From the NCBI GenBank assembly GCA_017416805.1, contig JAFQBB010000016.1:1-52206 (forward strand): a stretch of DNA of 52,206 nucleotides, read 5' to 3'. A program made the position numbers and the translations under genes. The stretch's first letter is position 1. The number at the start of each line of letters is the position of its first letter. Source of the stretch: Bacteroidaceae bacterium. Its GTDB lineage: Bacteria; Bacteroidota; Bacteroidia; Bacteroidales; Bacteroidaceae. This document shows positions 35,692 through 41,761 of this stretch, one piece after another. The notes beneath the pieces were generated by a model that did no database searches, was not told the origin of the DNA, and was given only the letters and a program-made list of their open reading frames with translations.

Positions 35692-35730
35692 GGAGATTTG
35701 TTTACTTCAACAAATCTTTCTCCTGTTCAT

Positions 35731-35761
35731 TTGTACTCCTGCAAAAGAATGACTACCTTTG
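35731..35761 (+). promoter_or_regulatory. Promoter of the pqqD-like operon
   Basis: TTGT at 35731-35734 and TACCTTTG at 35754-35761, spacer 19 bp, 37 bp before the start at 35799. It is the only strong promoter before the five-gene unit. Confidence 0.8.
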
Positions 35762-35798: not shown

Positions 35799-36071
35799 AT
35801 GAAAATAAATCCAGACCATACCCTGCGCGACATTGCGGGGGAAACGATTATTGTTGACCAAGGAAGCACACACACCGATATGACACGCATTATCTCGCTC
35901 AACGCTTCGGCTCGCCTGTTATGGGAACGCCTTGCGGGAACTGAGTTCTGCATTGACGATGCCGCCCGTATCCTGACCGAGCAATATGGCATTGACAAAG
36001 AACAAGCAATGACCGATGCCACCCGTTGGGCCGAACGCTTACAGGCATGTGGCGGAATTTTGGACAAATGA
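35799..36071 (+). CDS. PqqD-family peptide-recognition protein
   Basis: A 90-residue protein with the PqqD/RRE winged-helix pattern: M-K-I-N-P-D-H-T-L-R-D-I-A-G-E, then I-S-L-N-A-S-A-R-L-L-W-E-R-L-A-G and a helical C-terminus. Proteins of this family bind the leader of a ribosomally made peptide and present it to modifying enzymes. First gene of a five-gene unit. Its stop overlaps the next start by four bases (ATGA at 36068). No precursor peptide gene is visible in the 107 bp before it. Confidence 0.88.
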   Translation: MKINPDHTLRDIAGETIIVDQGSTHTDMTRIISLNASARLLWERLAGTEFCIDDAARILTEQYGIDKEQAMTDATRWAERLQACGGILDK

Positions 36072-37213
36072 GACAAAGGACAATGAAGGGTGAAGAATTA
36101 AGCCTTCCTGCACGAATGCTATTGGCCCTGTTGGGACGTGCATTGGGAGGGAACGACATTTCAACGGCCTTGTTTGAAAAAGCAACCGAAGCCGATTGGA
36201 GAAGCTGTTACAGGCTTGCCATCGGACAAGGGGTAATGGCTATAGCATGGGACGGTGTGACAACATTGTCCCCCTCCATATTCCCACCACGCACATTGAA
36301 ACTGGAATGGGCTGTAGCGGTGGAAAGATATGAGCAACGCTATGCCCACTATTGCCATACAGTACACGAACTGACCGAGTTTTTCCGGCCATACGGTATT
36401 GGATTGATGCAACTCAAGGGAGTCGGTTTCTCAACTTATTATCCTATACCCGCACACCGCGAAGGTGGAGATATTGACATACGGCTCTACTCGTTGGACC
36501 TGTCCAACATGAGCGATGAAGAAGCACGCCTCAAGGGCGAGCAACTGATGAAGGAACAAGGCATCCATATAAGCAGCGACCACTCGGAAAAACACAACGA
36601 ATTCCACTACAACGGAATCCTCATTGAAAGCCACAAAAGCTTCCTCAACACCTACAACACCCCCGAAGCCCAAGCTATGGAAGAGTTCCTGCAGAAACAG
36701 AGCGAACCCGTAGAAACAGCACTCATGGAAGGGGAATACTCAATCAACGTGCCTTCTGATTCTTTCAATGCCGTATTCATTGGGTTTCATGCCGCCCAAC
36801 ACTATATCCAAGGACTGGCCCTGCACCATTTGTGCGATTGGGCATGCATGTTGAAACATGGGGGCCTACAACTTCTTCCCGCCGAAATAATGGATCCCAA
36901 GGTGATGCGCTTTATCCATGCCCTGACAGGACTTTCCTACGAATACTTGGGGACTTCTGACGTGGTAAACTTTGACAGGAAATATGCTCATGCCATCCTG
37001 CTCGAAATGATTAATCCCCCTTACTCTATTGAAAAGGGAGAAACCATAAAGAATAGTGCATGGCACACATTCGTCTTCAAGACAAAACGTTTCATACACC
37101 GCCACAAGAAAGTAAACACAGTGTTCACCATCAGTCTGGCAAACCGTCTGAAAGAGGTGTACAAGAACAACATAGGGAATCCTGCCCGACTATTCCACCT
37201 GACAGGAAAATGA
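36068..37213 (+). CDS. Nucleotidyltransferase-fold protein (NTP_transf_5-like)
   Basis: A 381-residue cytoplasmic protein. The active-site pattern of the family is present: L-K-G-V-G (116-120), then Y-Y-P-I-P-A-H-R-E-G-G-D-I-D-I (124-138) with the paired acidic residues D-x-D. Relatives occur beside lasso-peptide and capsule genes. The start at 36068 is chosen because it gives the ATGA overlap with the pqqD-like gene; 36083 is the next in-frame Met. It overlaps the following ABC gene in the same way, so the three are translationally coupled. The transferred group and acceptor are unknown. Confidence 0.85.
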   Translation: MRQRTMKGEELSLPARMLLALLGRALGGNDISTALFEKATEADWRSCYRLAIGQGVMAIAWDGVTTLSPSIFPPRTLKLEWAVAVERYEQRYAHYCHTVHELTEFFRPYGIGLMQLKGVGFSTYYPIPAHREGGDIDIRLYSLDLSNMSDEEARLKGEQLMKEQGIHISSDHSEKHNEFHYNGILIESHKSFLNTYNTPEAQAMEEFLQKQSEPVETALMEGEYSINVPSDSFNAVFIGFHAAQHYIQGLALHHLCDWACMLKHGGLQLLPAEIMDPKVMRFIHALTGLSYEYLGTSDVVNFDRKYAHAILLEMINPPYSIEKGETIKNSAWHTFVFKTKRFIHRHKKVNTVFTISLANRLKEVYKNNIGNPARLFHLTGK

Positions 37214-38841
37214 ATCTACTGAAACGAACATACCGTCTCCTGCTTCCCAAAGAGCGTAAGAATGCCGTCTGTGTGACAGGTATTGTCTTCCTTACGGCCT
37301 TGCTTGATTTTGTCGGGATAGCCTCTCTCCTACCCATCCTGTACCTCTTATTGGAAGAACGGAGCGACCGTTCAACGGTTTACCTTTTCTGTGCGTTGGC
37401 CTTCGTCGTAATCATAGTGAAGGGATTCGCCACCACCTATCTGCAGAAGGTACAGCACCGTTTCCTGCTCAATCTCTACAAACGGCTCAGCCTGACGCTT
37501 TATACAGCTTACTACCAACGCGGATTGCTCTTTATTCGCGAGCGGGGTGCCAGCCGTCTTGTTTTTGAAATCAACAACATCTGCTTCGGCTTCAGCCAAG
37601 GCATACTTATGCCCCTGCTACGCATGACCTCGGACGCCATGCTGTTGCTGCTCACCTCCATTGCTTTCCTCATTTACGACGGTGCTACAATGCTCCTGCT
37701 CTATGCCTCGTTCATTCCTTTCGTCGTAGTCTATCTTTTAGTTGTACGCAAACGCATCAGCCAATATGGGCGGGACGAACAAGAGGCCAAACGTGAACAA
37801 TCCCGAGTGGTCAACGACACTTTCCGCGGATATGTTGATGCCGAAGTTTATGGAGTTTTCCCTTCGTTATGGAAATCGTTTGAAAAGGGAGCTGACCACG
37901 TATCGGACACCCGGATGCAAATGATGACCATGCAACGCATCCCCATGGTAATGTCAGAACTGTCGGTAGTTATCGGATTGGCCCTATTGGCATTTACCGG
38001 GCAAGGGGACATGAGCCTGCTGACGGGTGCTTTTGCCCTCGTGGCATTGCGTTTGCTCCCGGCTTTGCGCAGTTTGTTGACAGGATGGACACAGATACAA
38101 CATGCCACCCATTGCCTGGATATCATTGAGGAAGGGTTGGCTGAGACAAACGGCTTGCAGAAGAGGGAAACCGAGCCGGACGACACACTGAGTTTCAAGC
38201 ATGAAATCAGCCTTTCAGGAATCACGTTTGCATACGAAGAGGGAACCAACGTCATCGAAAACTTCACCTGCACCGTCCGGAAAGGAGAGTTTGTAGGCAT
38301 AAGCGGACCAAGCGGAGTGGGAAAAACCACCTTGTTCAACATCCTGTTAGGGTTCATAAAACCACAAAAAGGAGAAATAAAAATAGATGGCTGCCCGCTG
38401 ACCAATGACAACATGCAAGTATGGCGCGGACAGATAGGATACGTACCACAAGATGTGTTCATCTTTGACACGACCCTGGCCGAAAACATCGCTTTAGGCG
38501 AAGAACATGCAGACGAAGAGAAAATAAAGAAGGTACTCGCACAAGTAGCGCTCGACTGCTGGCTGGAAAGCCTGCCTAAAGGATTGGACACACCGATGAA
38601 CGAAGCCGGCACACGCCTGTCAGGCGGACAGAAACAACGCTTGGGCATGGCACGGGCCTTGTACAAACAGTGCAATGTCCTGTTGCTGGACGAAGCAGCA
38701 TCAGCTCTCGACAAAGAGACCGAAAGCGAGATTAACGAAACAATAGCCCGAATGAGAAAGGCTGACCGGAATCTGACCATACTCTACATAGCCCATCACG
38801 AAACCGCATTGGCCATCTGTGACAGGGTGGTAAAATTATAA
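37210..38841 (+). CDS. ABC exporter, fused permease and ATPase
   Basis: A 543-residue half-transporter. About six membrane helices fill residues 20-280 and an ATPase domain fills 325-543 with Walker A G-P-S-G-V-G-K-T-T (about 365-373), Q-loop region G-Y-V-P-Q-D, signature L-S-G-G-Q-K-Q-R (about 470), Walker B L-L-L-D-E-A-A-S-A-L-D and H-loop I-A-H-H. It lacks the N-terminal C39 peptidase of bacteriocin exporters, so leader removal would need another protease, such as the one at 39736. The start at 37210 overlaps the stop of the nucleotidyltransferase gene; a longer frame to 37060 is rejected. Confidence 0.92.
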   Translation: MNLLKRTYRLLLPKERKNAVCVTGIVFLTALLDFVGIASLLPILYLLLEERSDRSTVYLFCALAFVVIIVKGFATTYLQKVQHRFLLNLYKRLSLTLYTAYYQRGLLFIRERGASRLVFEINNICFGFSQGILMPLLRMTSDAMLLLLTSIAFLIYDGATMLLLYASFIPFVVVYLLVVRKRISQYGRDEQEAKREQSRVVNDTFRGYVDAEVYGVFPSLWKSFEKGADHVSDTRMQMMTMQRIPMVMSELSVVIGLALLAFTGQGDMSLLTGAFALVALRLLPALRSLLTGWTQIQHATHCLDIIEEGLAETNGLQKRETEPDDTLSFKHEISLSGITFAYEEGTNVIENFTCTVRKGEFVGISGPSGVGKTTLFNILLGFIKPQKGEIKIDGCPLTNDNMQVWRGQIGYVPQDVFIFDTTLAENIALGEEHADEEKIKKVLAQVALDCWLESLPKGLDTPMNEAGTRLSGGQKQRLGMARALYKQCNVLLLDEAASALDKETESEINETIARMRKADRNLTILYIAHHETALAICDRVVKL

Positions 38842-38861
38842 CGACCAACACACACACGACA

Positions 38862-39734
38862 ATGAACAACCAGACAACCCGATATTACACCATAGGAAAC
38901 CATACATTCTCCGTCGGAGGTGAAAATCTGTGCGGCATACTGGCCGACAAATACCGGTTCGAGAAGTTTCTTGCCGACAATACGGACAAGGTTAAAGCAG
39001 AATTCCGCTTTATAGAAACGGCAGAAGTGCCACCTGCCTCCGGACAACTTATTTACCGGCTGAAGGACGAAGATACCCTGTTCCTCTTCACCCGCACGTC
39101 TGCGGGATACCGGTTGCACCAGCAGCAGGATTGCGGAAAGACGTTGGATTTGTGGTTGGACGAAGGAAACCGGAAGATGAAACTGGCCGGAGATTTGGAC
39201 CACCGGATGGTCTATTACGCCCTGTGGTTCGGCTATGGCATGCAGACACTGGGCAGGCAGACCGTCATGGTACACAGCAGTTGCATAGTGTGCCACGAAG
39301 GGGCCATCCTCTTTCTCGGCGAAAGCGGTACGGGGAAAAGCACCCACACCCGCCTGTGGCGCGAACACATAGCAGGAGCACACCTGCTGAACGATGACAG
39401 CCCCGTGCTGCGCATCGAGGAGGGCGAAGTATGGGTCTATGGAAGTCCGTGGAGCGGCAAGACCCCCTGTTACCGCACGGAGCGCTACAGGCTGAAGGCC
39501 TGCGTACGCCTTTCGCAAGCTCCACGAAACGAGATGAAGCGCCTCTCCGTGCTGCAAGGATACGCCGCCCTCCATCCCTCATTCCCCCCACCGTTTGCCT
39601 ACGAACGCTCGTTGTACAACCCCTTGAGCCGGATGCTGGGAGACATTCTTTCACAAGTGCCCTGCTACCACCTGGCCTGTCTGCCCGATGAAGAGGCCGC
39701 ACGCTTGTCGCACGACACGCTATTAAACCTATAA
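38862..39734 (+). CDS. HprK-like kinase
   Basis: A 290-residue protein with the P-loop kinase pattern of the HPr kinase family: V-H-S-S (137-140), Walker A G-E-S-G-T-G-K-S (153-160), L-N-D-D-S-P (176-181) and G-S-P-W-S-G-K-T (194-201). The N-terminal 110 residues are unlike HPr kinase and may bind the partner. Related stand-alone kinases phosphorylate the C-terminus of lasso peptides such as paeninodin. Here it lies 20 bp after the exporter and 1 bp before the peptidase gene. A role in modifying an exported peptide is inference. Confidence 0.85.
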   Translation: MNNQTTRYYTIGNHTFSVGGENLCGILADKYRFEKFLADNTDKVKAEFRFIETAEVPPASGQLIYRLKDEDTLFLFTRTSAGYRLHQQQDCGKTLDLWLDEGNRKMKLAGDLDHRMVYYALWFGYGMQTLGRQTVMVHSSCIVCHEGAILFLGESGTGKSTHTRLWREHIAGAHLLNDDSPVLRIEEGEVWVYGSPWSGKTPCYRTERYRLKACVRLSQAPRNEMKRLSVLQGYAALHPSFPPPFAYERSLYNPLSRMLGDILSQVPCYHLACLPDEEAARLSHDTLLNL

Positions 39735-39735
39735 C

Positions 39736-40182
39736 ATGAAGGAAATCCCCAACCATCTTTTTTTCGCTTGGGCTGAAGAGGAGATAGCCCAAGGCCGCTG
39801 CATCCGCATACGGATGAGGGGCATCTCCATGCGCCCCTTCCTGCGCGAAGGGAAGGACGAGATTACCATTGCCCCTTGCCGCCCGGACCGCCTGAAAAGG
39901 CTCGATGTGGTCCTGTTCCGCTACAAAGGCAAGCACCTTGTACACCGCATAGTGAATATTGACGGCGGACTATACACCCTGCAAGGCGATGGCGTATGGG
40001 CTTCGCAAGAACAGTGCCATGCCTGCGACATTGTGGGAAAGATGACCGCCATCCACCGCCCGTCAGGCAAGGCCATCTCCGTGACATCGCGCACCTGGCG
40101 CACCTATAGCCGCCTGTGGCACACGCTGCGCCCGCTCAGACAATGGGTGCTGCGCATTTTGCGCCATACATGGTGGTGGTAA
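39736..40182 (+). CDS. S24/S26-type signal-peptidase-like protease
   Basis: A 148-residue protein. The motif R-G-I-S-M-R-P-F-L puts the nucleophile at Ser31; L-V-H-R-I-V puts a His at 70; and L-Q-G-D-G-V-W puts an Asp at 85. This Ser-His-Asp arrangement is that of Sec11/SipW-type signal peptidases, not the Ser-Lys dyad of LepB. There is no clear N-terminal anchor; the C-terminus (about 121-148) is basic and Trp-rich and may associate with membrane. It begins one base after the kinase stop. It is the best candidate leader peptidase of this unit. Confidence 0.8.
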   Translation: MKEIPNHLFFAWAEEEIAQGRCIRIRMRGISMRPFLREGKDEITIAPCRPDRLKRLDVVLFRYKGKHLVHRIVNIDGGLYTLQGDGVWASQEQCHACDIVGKMTAIHRPSGKAISVTSRTWRTYSRLWHTLRPLRQWVLRILRHTWWW

Positions 40183-40227: not shown

Positions 40228-40422
40228 GGTATGTCATAATTAACTTTTTAGACGCAGATGACGCGGATGACGCGGATTATTCCTTCCTATTATACCCAAC
40301 CATACCTTAAATAAATAAAAGAGGTTCTCGATGAGCCGAAAGGCGAATAAAGGTTATAATTTATCTGCGTCATCCGCGTCATCCGCGTCTAAAGAATGAA
40401 AAGAAAGCATCTTGACACATCC
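40228..40422. repeat. Dispersed palindromic repeat, family P, copy 4 (diverged)
   Basis: Termini ATGTCATAATTAAC and CTTGACACAT correspond to those of the other copies. The arms use CGCAGATGACGCGGATGACG / CGTCATCCGCGTCATCCGCG, and a central insert of about 60 bp separates them. It lies just after the five-gene unit. Confidence 0.75.
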
Positions 40423-40509: not shown

Positions 40510-41337
40510 TTATTCTGTGACGGGGCGAACGCTGTGTCCGTAGCAACGGCTGTAGAAGTGCCAACGGCGGTAGCCGTCGTAGAAGTAGAGGCCGTACGCG
40601 CCGCCGCTGTAGCCCTCGTTCAACGTAGCAGACCAGTAGTAGCCGTTCGAGCCACGGTTGTGGAGGCCCGCACCGTCGCGGTAGCCCGCAGCGGGAAGGA
40701 AGATTGATTTACCGTTGGGACCGGTAACTTTATTACCCTTTACTCCGTTTTGAGTAGTCCACGTCCAAGTACAGTTATTAAACAATTCCCCTATCTCATC
40801 TAAAGTAGGCATACGCCAACTGCCGCCCCAATTGGCTGTGGCAGCATCATAAGCAGCGGTCAGGTTGCCATCGGAACCAATGATGCCACGGGACTGCAAT
40901 TCGGAAGTGGAAAGGCCGTAGGTGGTGCTGTTACTATTTGTATAACTTGACTTGGTCGTGGTCTCGCCCCAAGCAAAGAAGTCACCGTACTCCTCGGGCG
41001 AAGAAGCACCCACGTTGCAGGTGGCCCACTTCACGGAAAGACCGAGGTCAACAGCTTCGTGGTATTCATTCTCGATACTGTCGGATACAATCGGACTGTC
41101 CTCTCCACCGGACGTGCTGTCATTCGGAAGTACAGGTTCATCTGCAGGAGGCATGATACTGTCTGTAGGGGTGGTTCCTCCGTTTTGACTGCCGCCACCA
41201 CCGTTGTCGTTCTGCTCTTGATTCGGGTCGTCAAACGGCTCGTCATCTTCATCATCGCCACAGGCGCATACAAAACTCAGCGAAAACGCCATCAACAGCA
41301 GAAAGAAGAGTTTCTGCAAATACTTTAAGTCTTTCAT
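40510..41337 (-). CDS. FISUMP-domain lipoprotein with NNC-rich C-terminus
   Basis: A 275-residue predicted surface lipoprotein. The signal peptide has a lipobox V-C-A-C with Cys26, followed by G-D-D-E-D-D-E, an acidic run like Bacteroides surface-export signals. A Gly/Pro/Asp/Ser-rich linker (about 30-90) leads to a domain of the Fibrobacter major paralogous type: A-V-D-L-G-L-S-V-K-W-A-T-C-N-V-G-A, then W-R-M-P-T-L-D-E-I, Y-Y-W-S-A-T and the end S-V-R-P-V. Such domains have a C-type-lectin-like fold. Codon use changes sharply in the last 60 codons (see findings): 24 of the 30 codons at 40531-40620 end in C. Function unknown; ligand binding at the surface is likely. Confidence 0.8.
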   Translation of the reverse strand: MKDLKYLQKLFFLLLMAFSLSFVCACGDDEDDEPFDDPNQEQNDNGGGGSQNGGTTPTDSIMPPADEPVLPNDSTSGGEDSPIVSDSIENEYHEAVDLGLSVKWATCNVGASSPEEYGDFFAWGETTTKSSYTNSNSTTYGLSTSELQSRGIIGSDGNLTAAYDAATANWGGSWRMPTLDEIGELFNNCTWTWTTQNGVKGNKVTGPNGKSIFLPAAGYRDGAGLHNRGSNGYYWSATLNEGYSGGAYGLYFYDGYRRWHFYSRCYGHSVRPVTE

Positions 41338-41545: not shown

Positions 41546-41717
41546 ATATTTCAAGTACCGGACAGAGACGCTTCTCCTGCCTCAAATTAATATTGTTTTT
41601 ATCGGTGGCAAATGTACCGCCAAATTCCCGAAGGGGGCGGCATGCGGGCGTTAAACTTCGTTAAGGGGATGCAAATAACGCAAACCAACGGCCTTCTGCC
41701 CTTGTTCTAAGTCCGTA

Positions 41718-41761
41718 GTGACTCCGATGTGACTCCGATGTGAGTCCGATGTGACTCTTAT
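41718..41761. repeat. 11-bp tandem array (GTGACTCCGAT)
   Basis: Four units start at 41718, 41729, 41740 and 41751: two exact, one with GAGTCC, one diverged at its end (CTTAT). No other feature is seen between 41762 and 42158 apart from AT-rich DNA; a 130-codon open frame at 42017-42409 runs through repeats and is not believed. Confidence 0.75.

What the first reader, a model, noticed from the sequence alone, without database searches (positions are those of the whole stretch)
35799..40182. Five-gene PqqD/nucleotidyltransferase/ABC/HprK-like/S26 peptidase operon without a precursor: candidate new RiPP-type system
Seen: one promoter, ATGA overlaps between genes 1-2 and 2-3, gaps of 20 and 1 bp afterwards. 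Known: PqqD-like proteins bind peptide leaders; HprK-like kinases and nucleotidyltransferases tailor lasso peptides such as paeninodin; ABC half-transporters export peptides. Missing: the lasso cyclase, the transglutaminase-like leader peptidase, and any precursor gene. The S26-type protease is the obvious substitute for leader cleavage because the exporter has no C39 domain. Inference: the unit modifies and exports a peptide encoded elsewhere or too small to see, by phosphoryl and nucleotidyl transfer and no macrocyclisation.
Basis: partly seen in the sequence, partly recalled or inferred. Interest (0 to 1): 0.78.

Follow-up and report, generated by a model that had tools for sequence, protein, structure and literature searches.

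The report
Likely peptide-phosphorylating operon, scattered precursors
This five-gene operon of a gut-type bacterium looks like a machine that phosphorylates, trims and exports small peptides whose genes lie elsewhere in the genome, often beside genes for large surface or secreted proteins; it closely resembles a peptide family described only in 2026 from another phylum.

Summary
The five genes are real and as described. The set (PqqD-like RRE, NTP transferase, MsbA-like ABC exporter, HprK-like kinase, Sec11/SipW-type S26 peptidase) is the core set of linear polyphosphorylated peptides (LPP; PMC13381572, May 2026), which its authors call restricted to Bacillota. The eight lasso-kinase motif residues are invariant in 60 aligned kinases; the peptidase keeps Ser31/His70 at the LppS spacing.

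None is in the window, but five short ORFs lie on other contigs of the same genome: leader YxxPx[V]E...VE-G[FY]A-x-[S/T], then a variable acidic tail. The Ser/Thr sits at Tyr+19, the register of phosphorylated Ser3 in lasso precursor BsfA. In 301 family genomes the peptides track the kinase (148/240 with, 9/61 without); an order-wide sample agrees (6/26 vs 2/171, own genome left out). Of 83 distinct peptides 50 lie just upstream of a lipoprotein gene (control 69/1604).

Verdict: new variant of a known kind, not filed as an LPP member. New here, as far as my searches show: the Bacteroidales branch, precursors used in trans, their pairing with surface-type proteins. Phosphorylation, cleavage and export are inferred; many kinase-positive genomes gave no peptide.

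The parts
35730..35761 (+). promoter-like TTTG-N20-TACCTTTG (Bacteroidales consensus, recalled)
   Evidence: pattern match; background 61 of 5000 random 250-bp stretches
35799..36071 (+). PqqD-like discrete RiPP recognition element (LppB-like)
   Evidence: PF05402 E 7.7e-12; closest solved relative the lasso RRE TfuB1, 6jx3, profile E 1.4e-5
36068..37213 (+). NTP_transf_5 nucleotidyltransferase (LppN-like)
   Evidence: PF14907 E 1.4e-37; K117, G118, R131, D135, D137 in 18 of 18 aligned rows
37210..38841 (+). MsbA/PglK/CydD-like ABC exporter, no C39 peptidase domain found (LppD-like)
   Evidence: PF00005 E 9.2e-34, no C39 match; NCBIfam CydD/PglK/MsbA best, below cut-offs
38862..39734 (+). HprK-like peptide kinase (LppK-like)
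   Evidence: H138, G153, G156, G158, K159, S160, D178, D179 in 60 of 60 aligned rows, corresponding to the BsfK motif in PMC10368454; PEPCK-type fold
39736..40182 (+). S26 signal-peptidase-like leader peptidase, Ser/His type (LppS-like)
   Evidence: S31 and H70 in 45 of 45, D85 in 44 of 45, D98 in 28 of 45 aligned rows; SEC11C profile E 2.4e-6

Best explanation
The operon encodes an LPP-like RiPP maturation machine acting in trans. Inferred order of events: (1) a dispersed precursor of roughly 34-74 aa is made; (2) its leader binds the PqqD-like RRE as a beta strand through the YxxPx[V/I/L] motif; (3) the HprK-like kinase phosphorylates, possibly repeatedly, the near-invariant Ser/Thr at Tyr+19 (core position 3 of A-x-S/T); (4) the S26 peptidase, to which the RRE presents the precursor, removes the leader, most likely between [F/Y/I] and A1; (5) the NTP transferase adds a further group, perhaps onto the phosphate; (6) the ABC exporter passes the linear acidic peptide out. 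Precursor genes often sit next to genes for large lipoproteins or other secreted proteins, so the product probably acts at the cell surface with that protein. Shown by sequence here: gene set, catalytic residues, precursor family, its register, co-occurrence and gene pairing. Shown by others for LPP of a Bacillota species: steps 2-4. Inferred for this organism: all steps; 5 and 6 are the least certain.
For: Same gene set as LPP. Kinase motif 60/60 and peptidase Ser/His 45/45. RRE closest to lasso RREs, which read YxxP. Five precursors in the window's genome, E 1.3e-13 to 1.1e-8. Ser/Thr at Tyr+19 in 71/82 family peptides and 22/23 out-of-family peptides, equal to BsfA Tyr(-17) to Ser3. Nine paralogues of one genome: leaders 90% identical (84% over residues 11-26), tails 10%. 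Co-occurrence: 148/240 kinase-positive vs 9/61 kinase-negative; window genus 10/10 vs 1/5; order-wide 7/27 vs 2/171, own genome included. Peptide gene 13, 22, 40 bp before the kinase gene in L138, L116, L143 and 39 bp in L303. Codon differences in the leader favour synonymous changes: 9 to 0 between L045 and L091, 9 to 1 between L046 and L091, 138 to 91 among the nine paralogues, but about even against L036 (6:7, 7:6, 7:7) and 0:1 between L045 and L046. No lasso B2 in 19/19 genomes.
Against: 92 of 240 kinase-positive family genomes and 20 of 27 kinase-positive order genomes gave no peptide at E 0.01: limited sensitivity, other precursors, or none. 38 of 121 loci, many of them Alistipes and some cut by contig ends, have no PqqD within 6 kb. 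G737 has a peptide match but neither kinase nor PqqD, though that frame has no ATG/GTG/TTG start. 16 of 79 tails have no Ser/Thr, so phosphorylation would rest on the junction residue alone. LppK did not phosphorylate S3T, yet Thr stands at the site in 9/82 and 2/23 peptides here. The Tyr-to-Ser spacing is 19 here, 18 in LPP. The RRE profile did not list LppB among 6 matches up to E 10 (whether 9x8z is in that copy is unknown). The peptide genes lack the operon's promoter pattern (1 of 75). Glycoside hydrolase genes lie near the operon. No expression data.
Confidence: 0.76

Rival explanations
1. The short ORFs are regulatory uORFs or leader peptides of the adjacent surface-protein genes, and the operon acts on something else; co-occurrence reflects shared lineage.
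For: 50 of 83 lie just upstream of a lipoprotein gene, gaps -61 to 133 bp with uncertain starts; peptide and kinase were both seen mainly in one order.
Against: Conservation is at protein level, with the YxxP motif read by RREs, while tails vary freely. Eleven of 83 lie directly downstream of secreted-protein genes, where an uORF makes little sense. Some sit directly before the kinase gene. The contrast holds inside the window's genus, 10/10 vs 1/5.
Confidence: 0.1
2. The operon is a true lasso system whose cyclase is encoded elsewhere.
For: Leader motif, RRE, kinase, NTP transferase and exporter all resemble paeninodin/Bsf lasso systems; the PadeA model matches 4 of 25 peptides weakly (best E 0.023).
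Against: Lasso B2 (PF13471) in 0 of 19 genomes. In the window's genome (91% complete) PF00733 matches only 28 model positions in one 442-aa frame; eight other genomes of the 19 have stronger matches, seven of them in frames of 562-609 aa, the size of asparagine synthetase (recalled; not checked further), and one (G060) of 358 aa.
Confidence: 0.03
3. Kinase and NTP transferase act on a sugar, glycan or lipid carrier, and the ABC protein is a flippase.
For: The ABC protein matches PglK/MsbA models; LPP and paeninodin loci often lie in capsule loci of Bacilli; a GH31 gene lies directly upstream, and GH9, GH43 and GH127 genes nearby.
Against: The kinase carries the lasso-peptide-kinase motif; an RRE has no known role in sugar pathways (recalled); precursors that track the kinase are found; the nearby sugar genes are hydrolases, and no glycosyltransferase was among the nine neighbours scanned.
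Confidence: 0.08

Closest known systems
Linear polyphosphorylated peptides (LPP; lppA-K-B-S-D-N), Popov et al. 2026, PMC13381572 (abstract, sections 6, 7, 8, 11, 12 and passages read)
   Same: RRE, HprK-like kinase, signal-peptidase-like leader peptidase with Ser and His 39 residues apart, NTP transferase, MsbA-like exporter; no cyclase needed; YxxPxV in the leader; variable C-terminal part; A-x-S at the (here inferred) core start.
   Different: There 1-3 precursors per cluster, nearly all from Bacillota, loci often near capsule genes. Here Bacteroidales, precursors dispersed and apparently used in trans, often paired with lipoprotein or secreted-protein genes; the leader lacks the HQxIxFET part; Tyr-to-Ser spacing 19 instead of 18.
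Phosphorylated lasso peptides: paeninodin (PMC9266682, passages) and Bsf (PMC10368454, passages and section 22)
   Same: YxxPx[L] leader, RRE, kinase with the H-G-G-G-K-S-D-D motif, NTP transferase, exporter; BsfK acts on Ser3, the same Tyr+19 register.
   Different: No lasso cyclase seen in the window's genome and no B2 protease; an S26 peptidase instead.
NCBIfam HprK-related kinase A (TIGR04352)
   Same: Weak kinase similarity (E 0.0011).
   Different: 18 bits against a cut-off of 200.

Membership tests
LPP | discrete RRE (PqqD-like) | tested here: met
   PF05402 E 7.7e-12; lasso RRE closest
LPP | HprK-like kinase with intact motif | tested here: met
   eight motif residues in 60 of 60 rows; fold
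LPP | signal-peptidase-I-like leader peptidase, catalytic Ser and His | tested here: met
   S31 and H70 in 45 of 45, spacing 39 as LppS S29/H68
LPP | catalytic Asp of the peptidase (LppS D93) | tested here: inconclusive
   D85 in 44 of 45, D98 in 28 of 45; which one corresponds is not settled
LPP | NTP transferase and MsbA-like transporter | tested here: met
LPP | no macrolactam cyclase or B2 of its own | tested here: met
   PF13471 in 0 of 19 genomes; only a 28-position PF00733 match in the window's genome
LPP | one to three precursors inside the gene cluster | tested here: not met
   none in the window; five elsewhere in the genome
LPP | precursor motif YxxPxVLxHQxIxFETxxS | tested here: not met
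   YxxPxV and the Ser are shared; the middle differs and the spacing is 19, not 18
LPP | RRE falls in the LPP clade | not tested
   LppB sequence not at hand; the RRE profile did not list 9x8z
LPP | polyphosphorylated Ser3 in the product | not testable with these tools
   needs mass spectrometry
lasso peptide | macrolactam (Asn synthase-like) cyclase | tested here: not met
   window's genome: only a 28-position match
lasso peptide | B2 transglutaminase-like leader peptidase | tested here: not met
   PF13471 in 0 of 19 genomes
lasso peptide | YxxPx[L/V/I] leader | tested here: met

The most novel reading that the evidence does not exclude
One conserved maturation operon serves many dispersed precursors, each paired with its own large surface protein, and the phosphorylated peptide becomes a working part of that protein or of its export (a prosthetic or co-secreted phosphopeptide) instead of a free natural product. 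This would be a general surface-modification system of Bacteroidales rather than an antibiotic-type RiPP pathway.
Probability: 0.35. Interest if true: 0.88.

Novelty: new variant of a known kind. Interest (0 to 1): 0.72.

Why it matters
LPP was described in 2026 as restricted to Bacillota, patchy and of unknown role. Here a homologue of the kinase is found in 240 of 301 sampled genomes of the window's family, and beside an S26 gene in 117 of 121 fetched loci. A precursor family that mining by gene cluster would largely miss goes with it, because the precursors mostly do not lie beside the enzymes. The pairing with surface-type proteins gives a testable idea of the role, and the many natural leader/core pairs are material for studying RRE, kinase and peptidase specificity.

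Tried and rejected
Precursor inside the window: profile search of window ORFs of 18 aa or more gave nothing better than E 0.79. Pfam: no match to 25 peptides. NCBIfam: weak PadeA, 4 of 25 and 4 of 34 (E 0.023), plus one single-member match. PHROGs: weak RDF match, 4 of 34, E 0.026, plus one single-member match, taken as chance. Large lipoprotein directly before PqqD as the main partner: seen in several loci, explained better by the peptide gene just before it. Shared promoter pattern before the peptides: 1 of 75 (background 61 of 5000), not supported. Sequence search of the PDB with the kinase profile gave weak P-loop-type matches, PEPCK among them, and with the NTP transferase profile one chance match at E 0.79. 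PMC10352776, PMC12710340, PMC7470986, PMC10885120 (passages read): none of the passages shown describes this Bacteroidales system. The statement that it is not in print rests on searches of an open-access library only.

Rows dropped and biases: one peptide with X residues (L084) left out; one unparsed peptide; five of 84 peptides without the E-x-G anchor left out of the 79. In one search one of the 11 peptides counted as lacking S/T at Tyr+19 (L199) was misparsed. G733 (E 0.003, inside a long frame, L279) counts as a peptide hit in the order-wide test but is not in the set; G737 (L274) is not in it either. The leader/tail figures used ten peptides picked by an identical first ten residues, so repeats them for the nine of one genome. 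Loci L031/L071, L036/L075, L038/L078, L044/L083, L048/L087 appear to be the same contigs (equal contig lengths), so locus counts include duplicates. In one search, 33 of 120 loci hold a peptide; the Poisson value there assumes five peptides per 3 Mb and is a rough guide. The 121 loci are the best kinase matches plus 20 chosen by me across genera. A4 rows came from loci beside the kinase, so (18 of 19 vs 4 of 282) is biased; the non-training count is 7 of 8 vs 4 of 282. A5 holds peptides of the window's genome; without its training genomes one search gives 138/230 vs 9/61. A10, used order-wide, holds rows from other families of the order; there the kinase threshold was E 1e-10. The genomes are related, so Fisher values overstate independence. 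Lipoprotein and signal-peptide calls rest on my own regular expressions. My notebook says 10 peptides around the G149 operon; the calls show nine.
Full report
Observation. The five ORFs, their ATGA overlaps, the 20 and 1 bp gaps and one promoter-like site are present. Domain searches give PqqD, NTP_transf_5, an ABC exporter without C39, an HprK-like kinase and an S26 signal-peptidase-like protein, the last two only weakly by sequence. Nine window neighbours were scanned: GH31 directly upstream, further GH9, GH43 and GH127 glycoside hydrolases, CorA, a sulfatase-type protein, a Fic protein, and two without a match.

Spread and gene order. A kinase homologue (E up to 0.001) is found in 240 of 301 family genomes and, with a profile at E up to 1e-10, in 27 of 198 genomes drawn across the order. 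In 121 loci fetched by kinase similarity, S26 lies within 6 kb of the kinase in 117 and PqqD in 83; the exact five-gene order occurs in 19, window included, some contigs counted twice. NTP transferase and ABC exporter are variable; kinase, S26 and PqqD form the core.

The missing precursor. Clustering of short ORFs around homologous loci gave a short-peptide family. No member was found in the window, but five lie on contigs C10, C5, C48, C61 and C11 of the same genome. In 83 distinct peptides the length is 31-74 aa, median 45, with uncertain starts. The family has two parts: a leader rich in E, V and K with Y-x-x-P-x-[V/T/L/M/I], G at Tyr+15 (78 of 82), F or Y at +16 (78 of 82), A at +17 (63 of 82) and S/T at +19 (71 of 82; nine of the 11 others have Ser at +20, one was misparsed), then a variable tail rich in G, D and E with W within the last six residues in 40 of 79. 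In peptides from other families of the order S/T stands at +19 in 22 of 23. In nine paralogues of one genome leaders are 90% identical (84% over residues 11-26) and tails 10%. Leader codon differences are mostly synonymous in some comparisons (9:0, 9:1, 138:91) and about even in others (6:7, 7:6, 7:7; 0:1 in one), which still argues for coding constraint, as most random changes are nonsynonymous. This is typical of RiPP precursors.

Link between peptide and operon. Peptide hits (E up to 0.01) occur in 148 of 240 kinase-positive and 9 of 61 kinase-negative family genomes; without training genomes 138 of 230 vs 9 of 61; among high-quality genomes 86 of 136 vs 2 of 33 (from the tallies). In the window's genus it is 10 of 10 vs 1 of 5. 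Of the nine exceptions three have a PqqD match and seven are under 90% complete. Order-wide it is 7 of 27 vs 2 of 171, or 6 of 26 without the own genome. In L138, L116, L143 and L303 the peptide gene lies 13, 22, 40 and 39 bp before the kinase gene. Many kinase-positive genomes still lack a hit, so either the profile is not sensitive enough or other precursors exist.

Pairing with surface-type proteins. Of 83 distinct peptides, 50 lie just upstream of a lipoprotein gene on the same strand (gap under 150 bp), 10 upstream of another secreted-protein gene, 11 downstream of one, 3 downstream of an unclassified same-strand gene and 9 neither; for 1604 control ORFs the first number is 69. By my reading, 17 of 23 out-of-family peptides also precede a lipoprotein gene. 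The lipoproteins are 100-1274 aa (some cut by locus ends). Of those scanned, some match PARCEL/DUF285, GLUG, LRR_5 or pectate-lyase-like adhesive models, or (below cut-off) the fimbrillin-like model, and several gave no match. In the window's genome the C5 and C48 peptides precede lipoproteins by 22 and 20 bp; C10, C61 and C11 follow secreted-type proteins of 1240, 561 and 718 aa by 93, 89 and 6 bp, C11 also preceding another secreted-type protein by 47 bp. Those three end in similar sequences of the type ...YI-x-x-G-[KQ]-K-V, which I take, from recall, for a surface-sorting domain.

Mechanism. Popov et al. 2026 (PMC13381572; sections 6, 7, 8, 11, 12 and passages read) report LPP: SpI-like peptidase, RRE, HprK-like kinase, NTP transferase, MsbA-like exporter, linear product, kinase-dependent phosphorylation of Ser3 of a core beginning A-Q-S, and RRE-dependent cleavage just before A1. 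In the lasso system Bsf, Tyr(-17) to Ser3 is 19 residues, exactly the Tyr-to-Ser/Thr distance here; in LPP it is 18. I therefore propose phosphorylation of the Ser/Thr at Tyr+19 and a cut before A1. A cut after A-x-S, as the signal-peptidase -3/-1 rule (recalled) would allow, is not excluded; Gly was not seen at Tyr+19 and Ala only where Ser follows at +20 or in the misparsed row, which favours a hydroxyl requirement and hence the kinase site.

Comparison and novelty. It works like LPP and shares its enzyme set, but two descriptors of LPP were tested and not met: precursors inside the cluster, and the full precursor motif. I therefore do not file it as an LPP member. The paper's own searches found mostly Bacillota, its discussion calls LPP restricted to Bacillota, and its main text has no word beginning with 'Bacteroid'. 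I rate it a new variant of a known kind. My literature searches covered an open-access library only.

Noticed in passing
window 40240-40277 and 40363-40400: 38-nt inverted repeat, 87% complementary, 85 nt apart, just downstream of the S26 gene; possibly a terminator or a small mobile element.
   Followed up: no
window 40510-41337 (-): Lipoprotein-like ORF with a weak Lcl_C match (below cut-off), convergent with the operon.
   Followed up: no
window 30004-50873: Glycoside hydrolase genes GH9, GH31, GH43 and GH127 around the operon.
   Followed up: no
window 41712-41755: Four tandem units of about 11 bp (direct repeat family D1).
   Followed up: no
L039 689-1528 and L043 10833-11687: Papain-like C1 peptidase gene (Pfam match for the L043 copy) overlapping the end of the S26 gene, perhaps a second protease of that branch.
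   Followed up: partly
L054, L055, L061, L062, L066, L070: A secreted-type protein of about 144-205 aa lies directly before the kinase gene, and a gene that looks by eye like sigma factor RpoD lies before it (the name is recalled).
   Followed up: no
26 loci, many Alistipes (e.g. L096, L106, L118): ABC-kinase-S26 operons with no PqqD within 6 kb.
   Followed up: no
L093, L094, L095, L097, L102, L103, L112: S26 ORFs there are about 270 aa instead of 150, with an unidentified extra region.
   Followed up: no
L052, L056, L058: Loci with two PqqD and two ABC genes around kinase and S26.
   Followed up: no
L221-L223: One genome (G149) has nine peptide genes in about 51 kb around the operon, each 7-90 bp before a 744-1104 aa lipoprotein gene.
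   Followed up: partly
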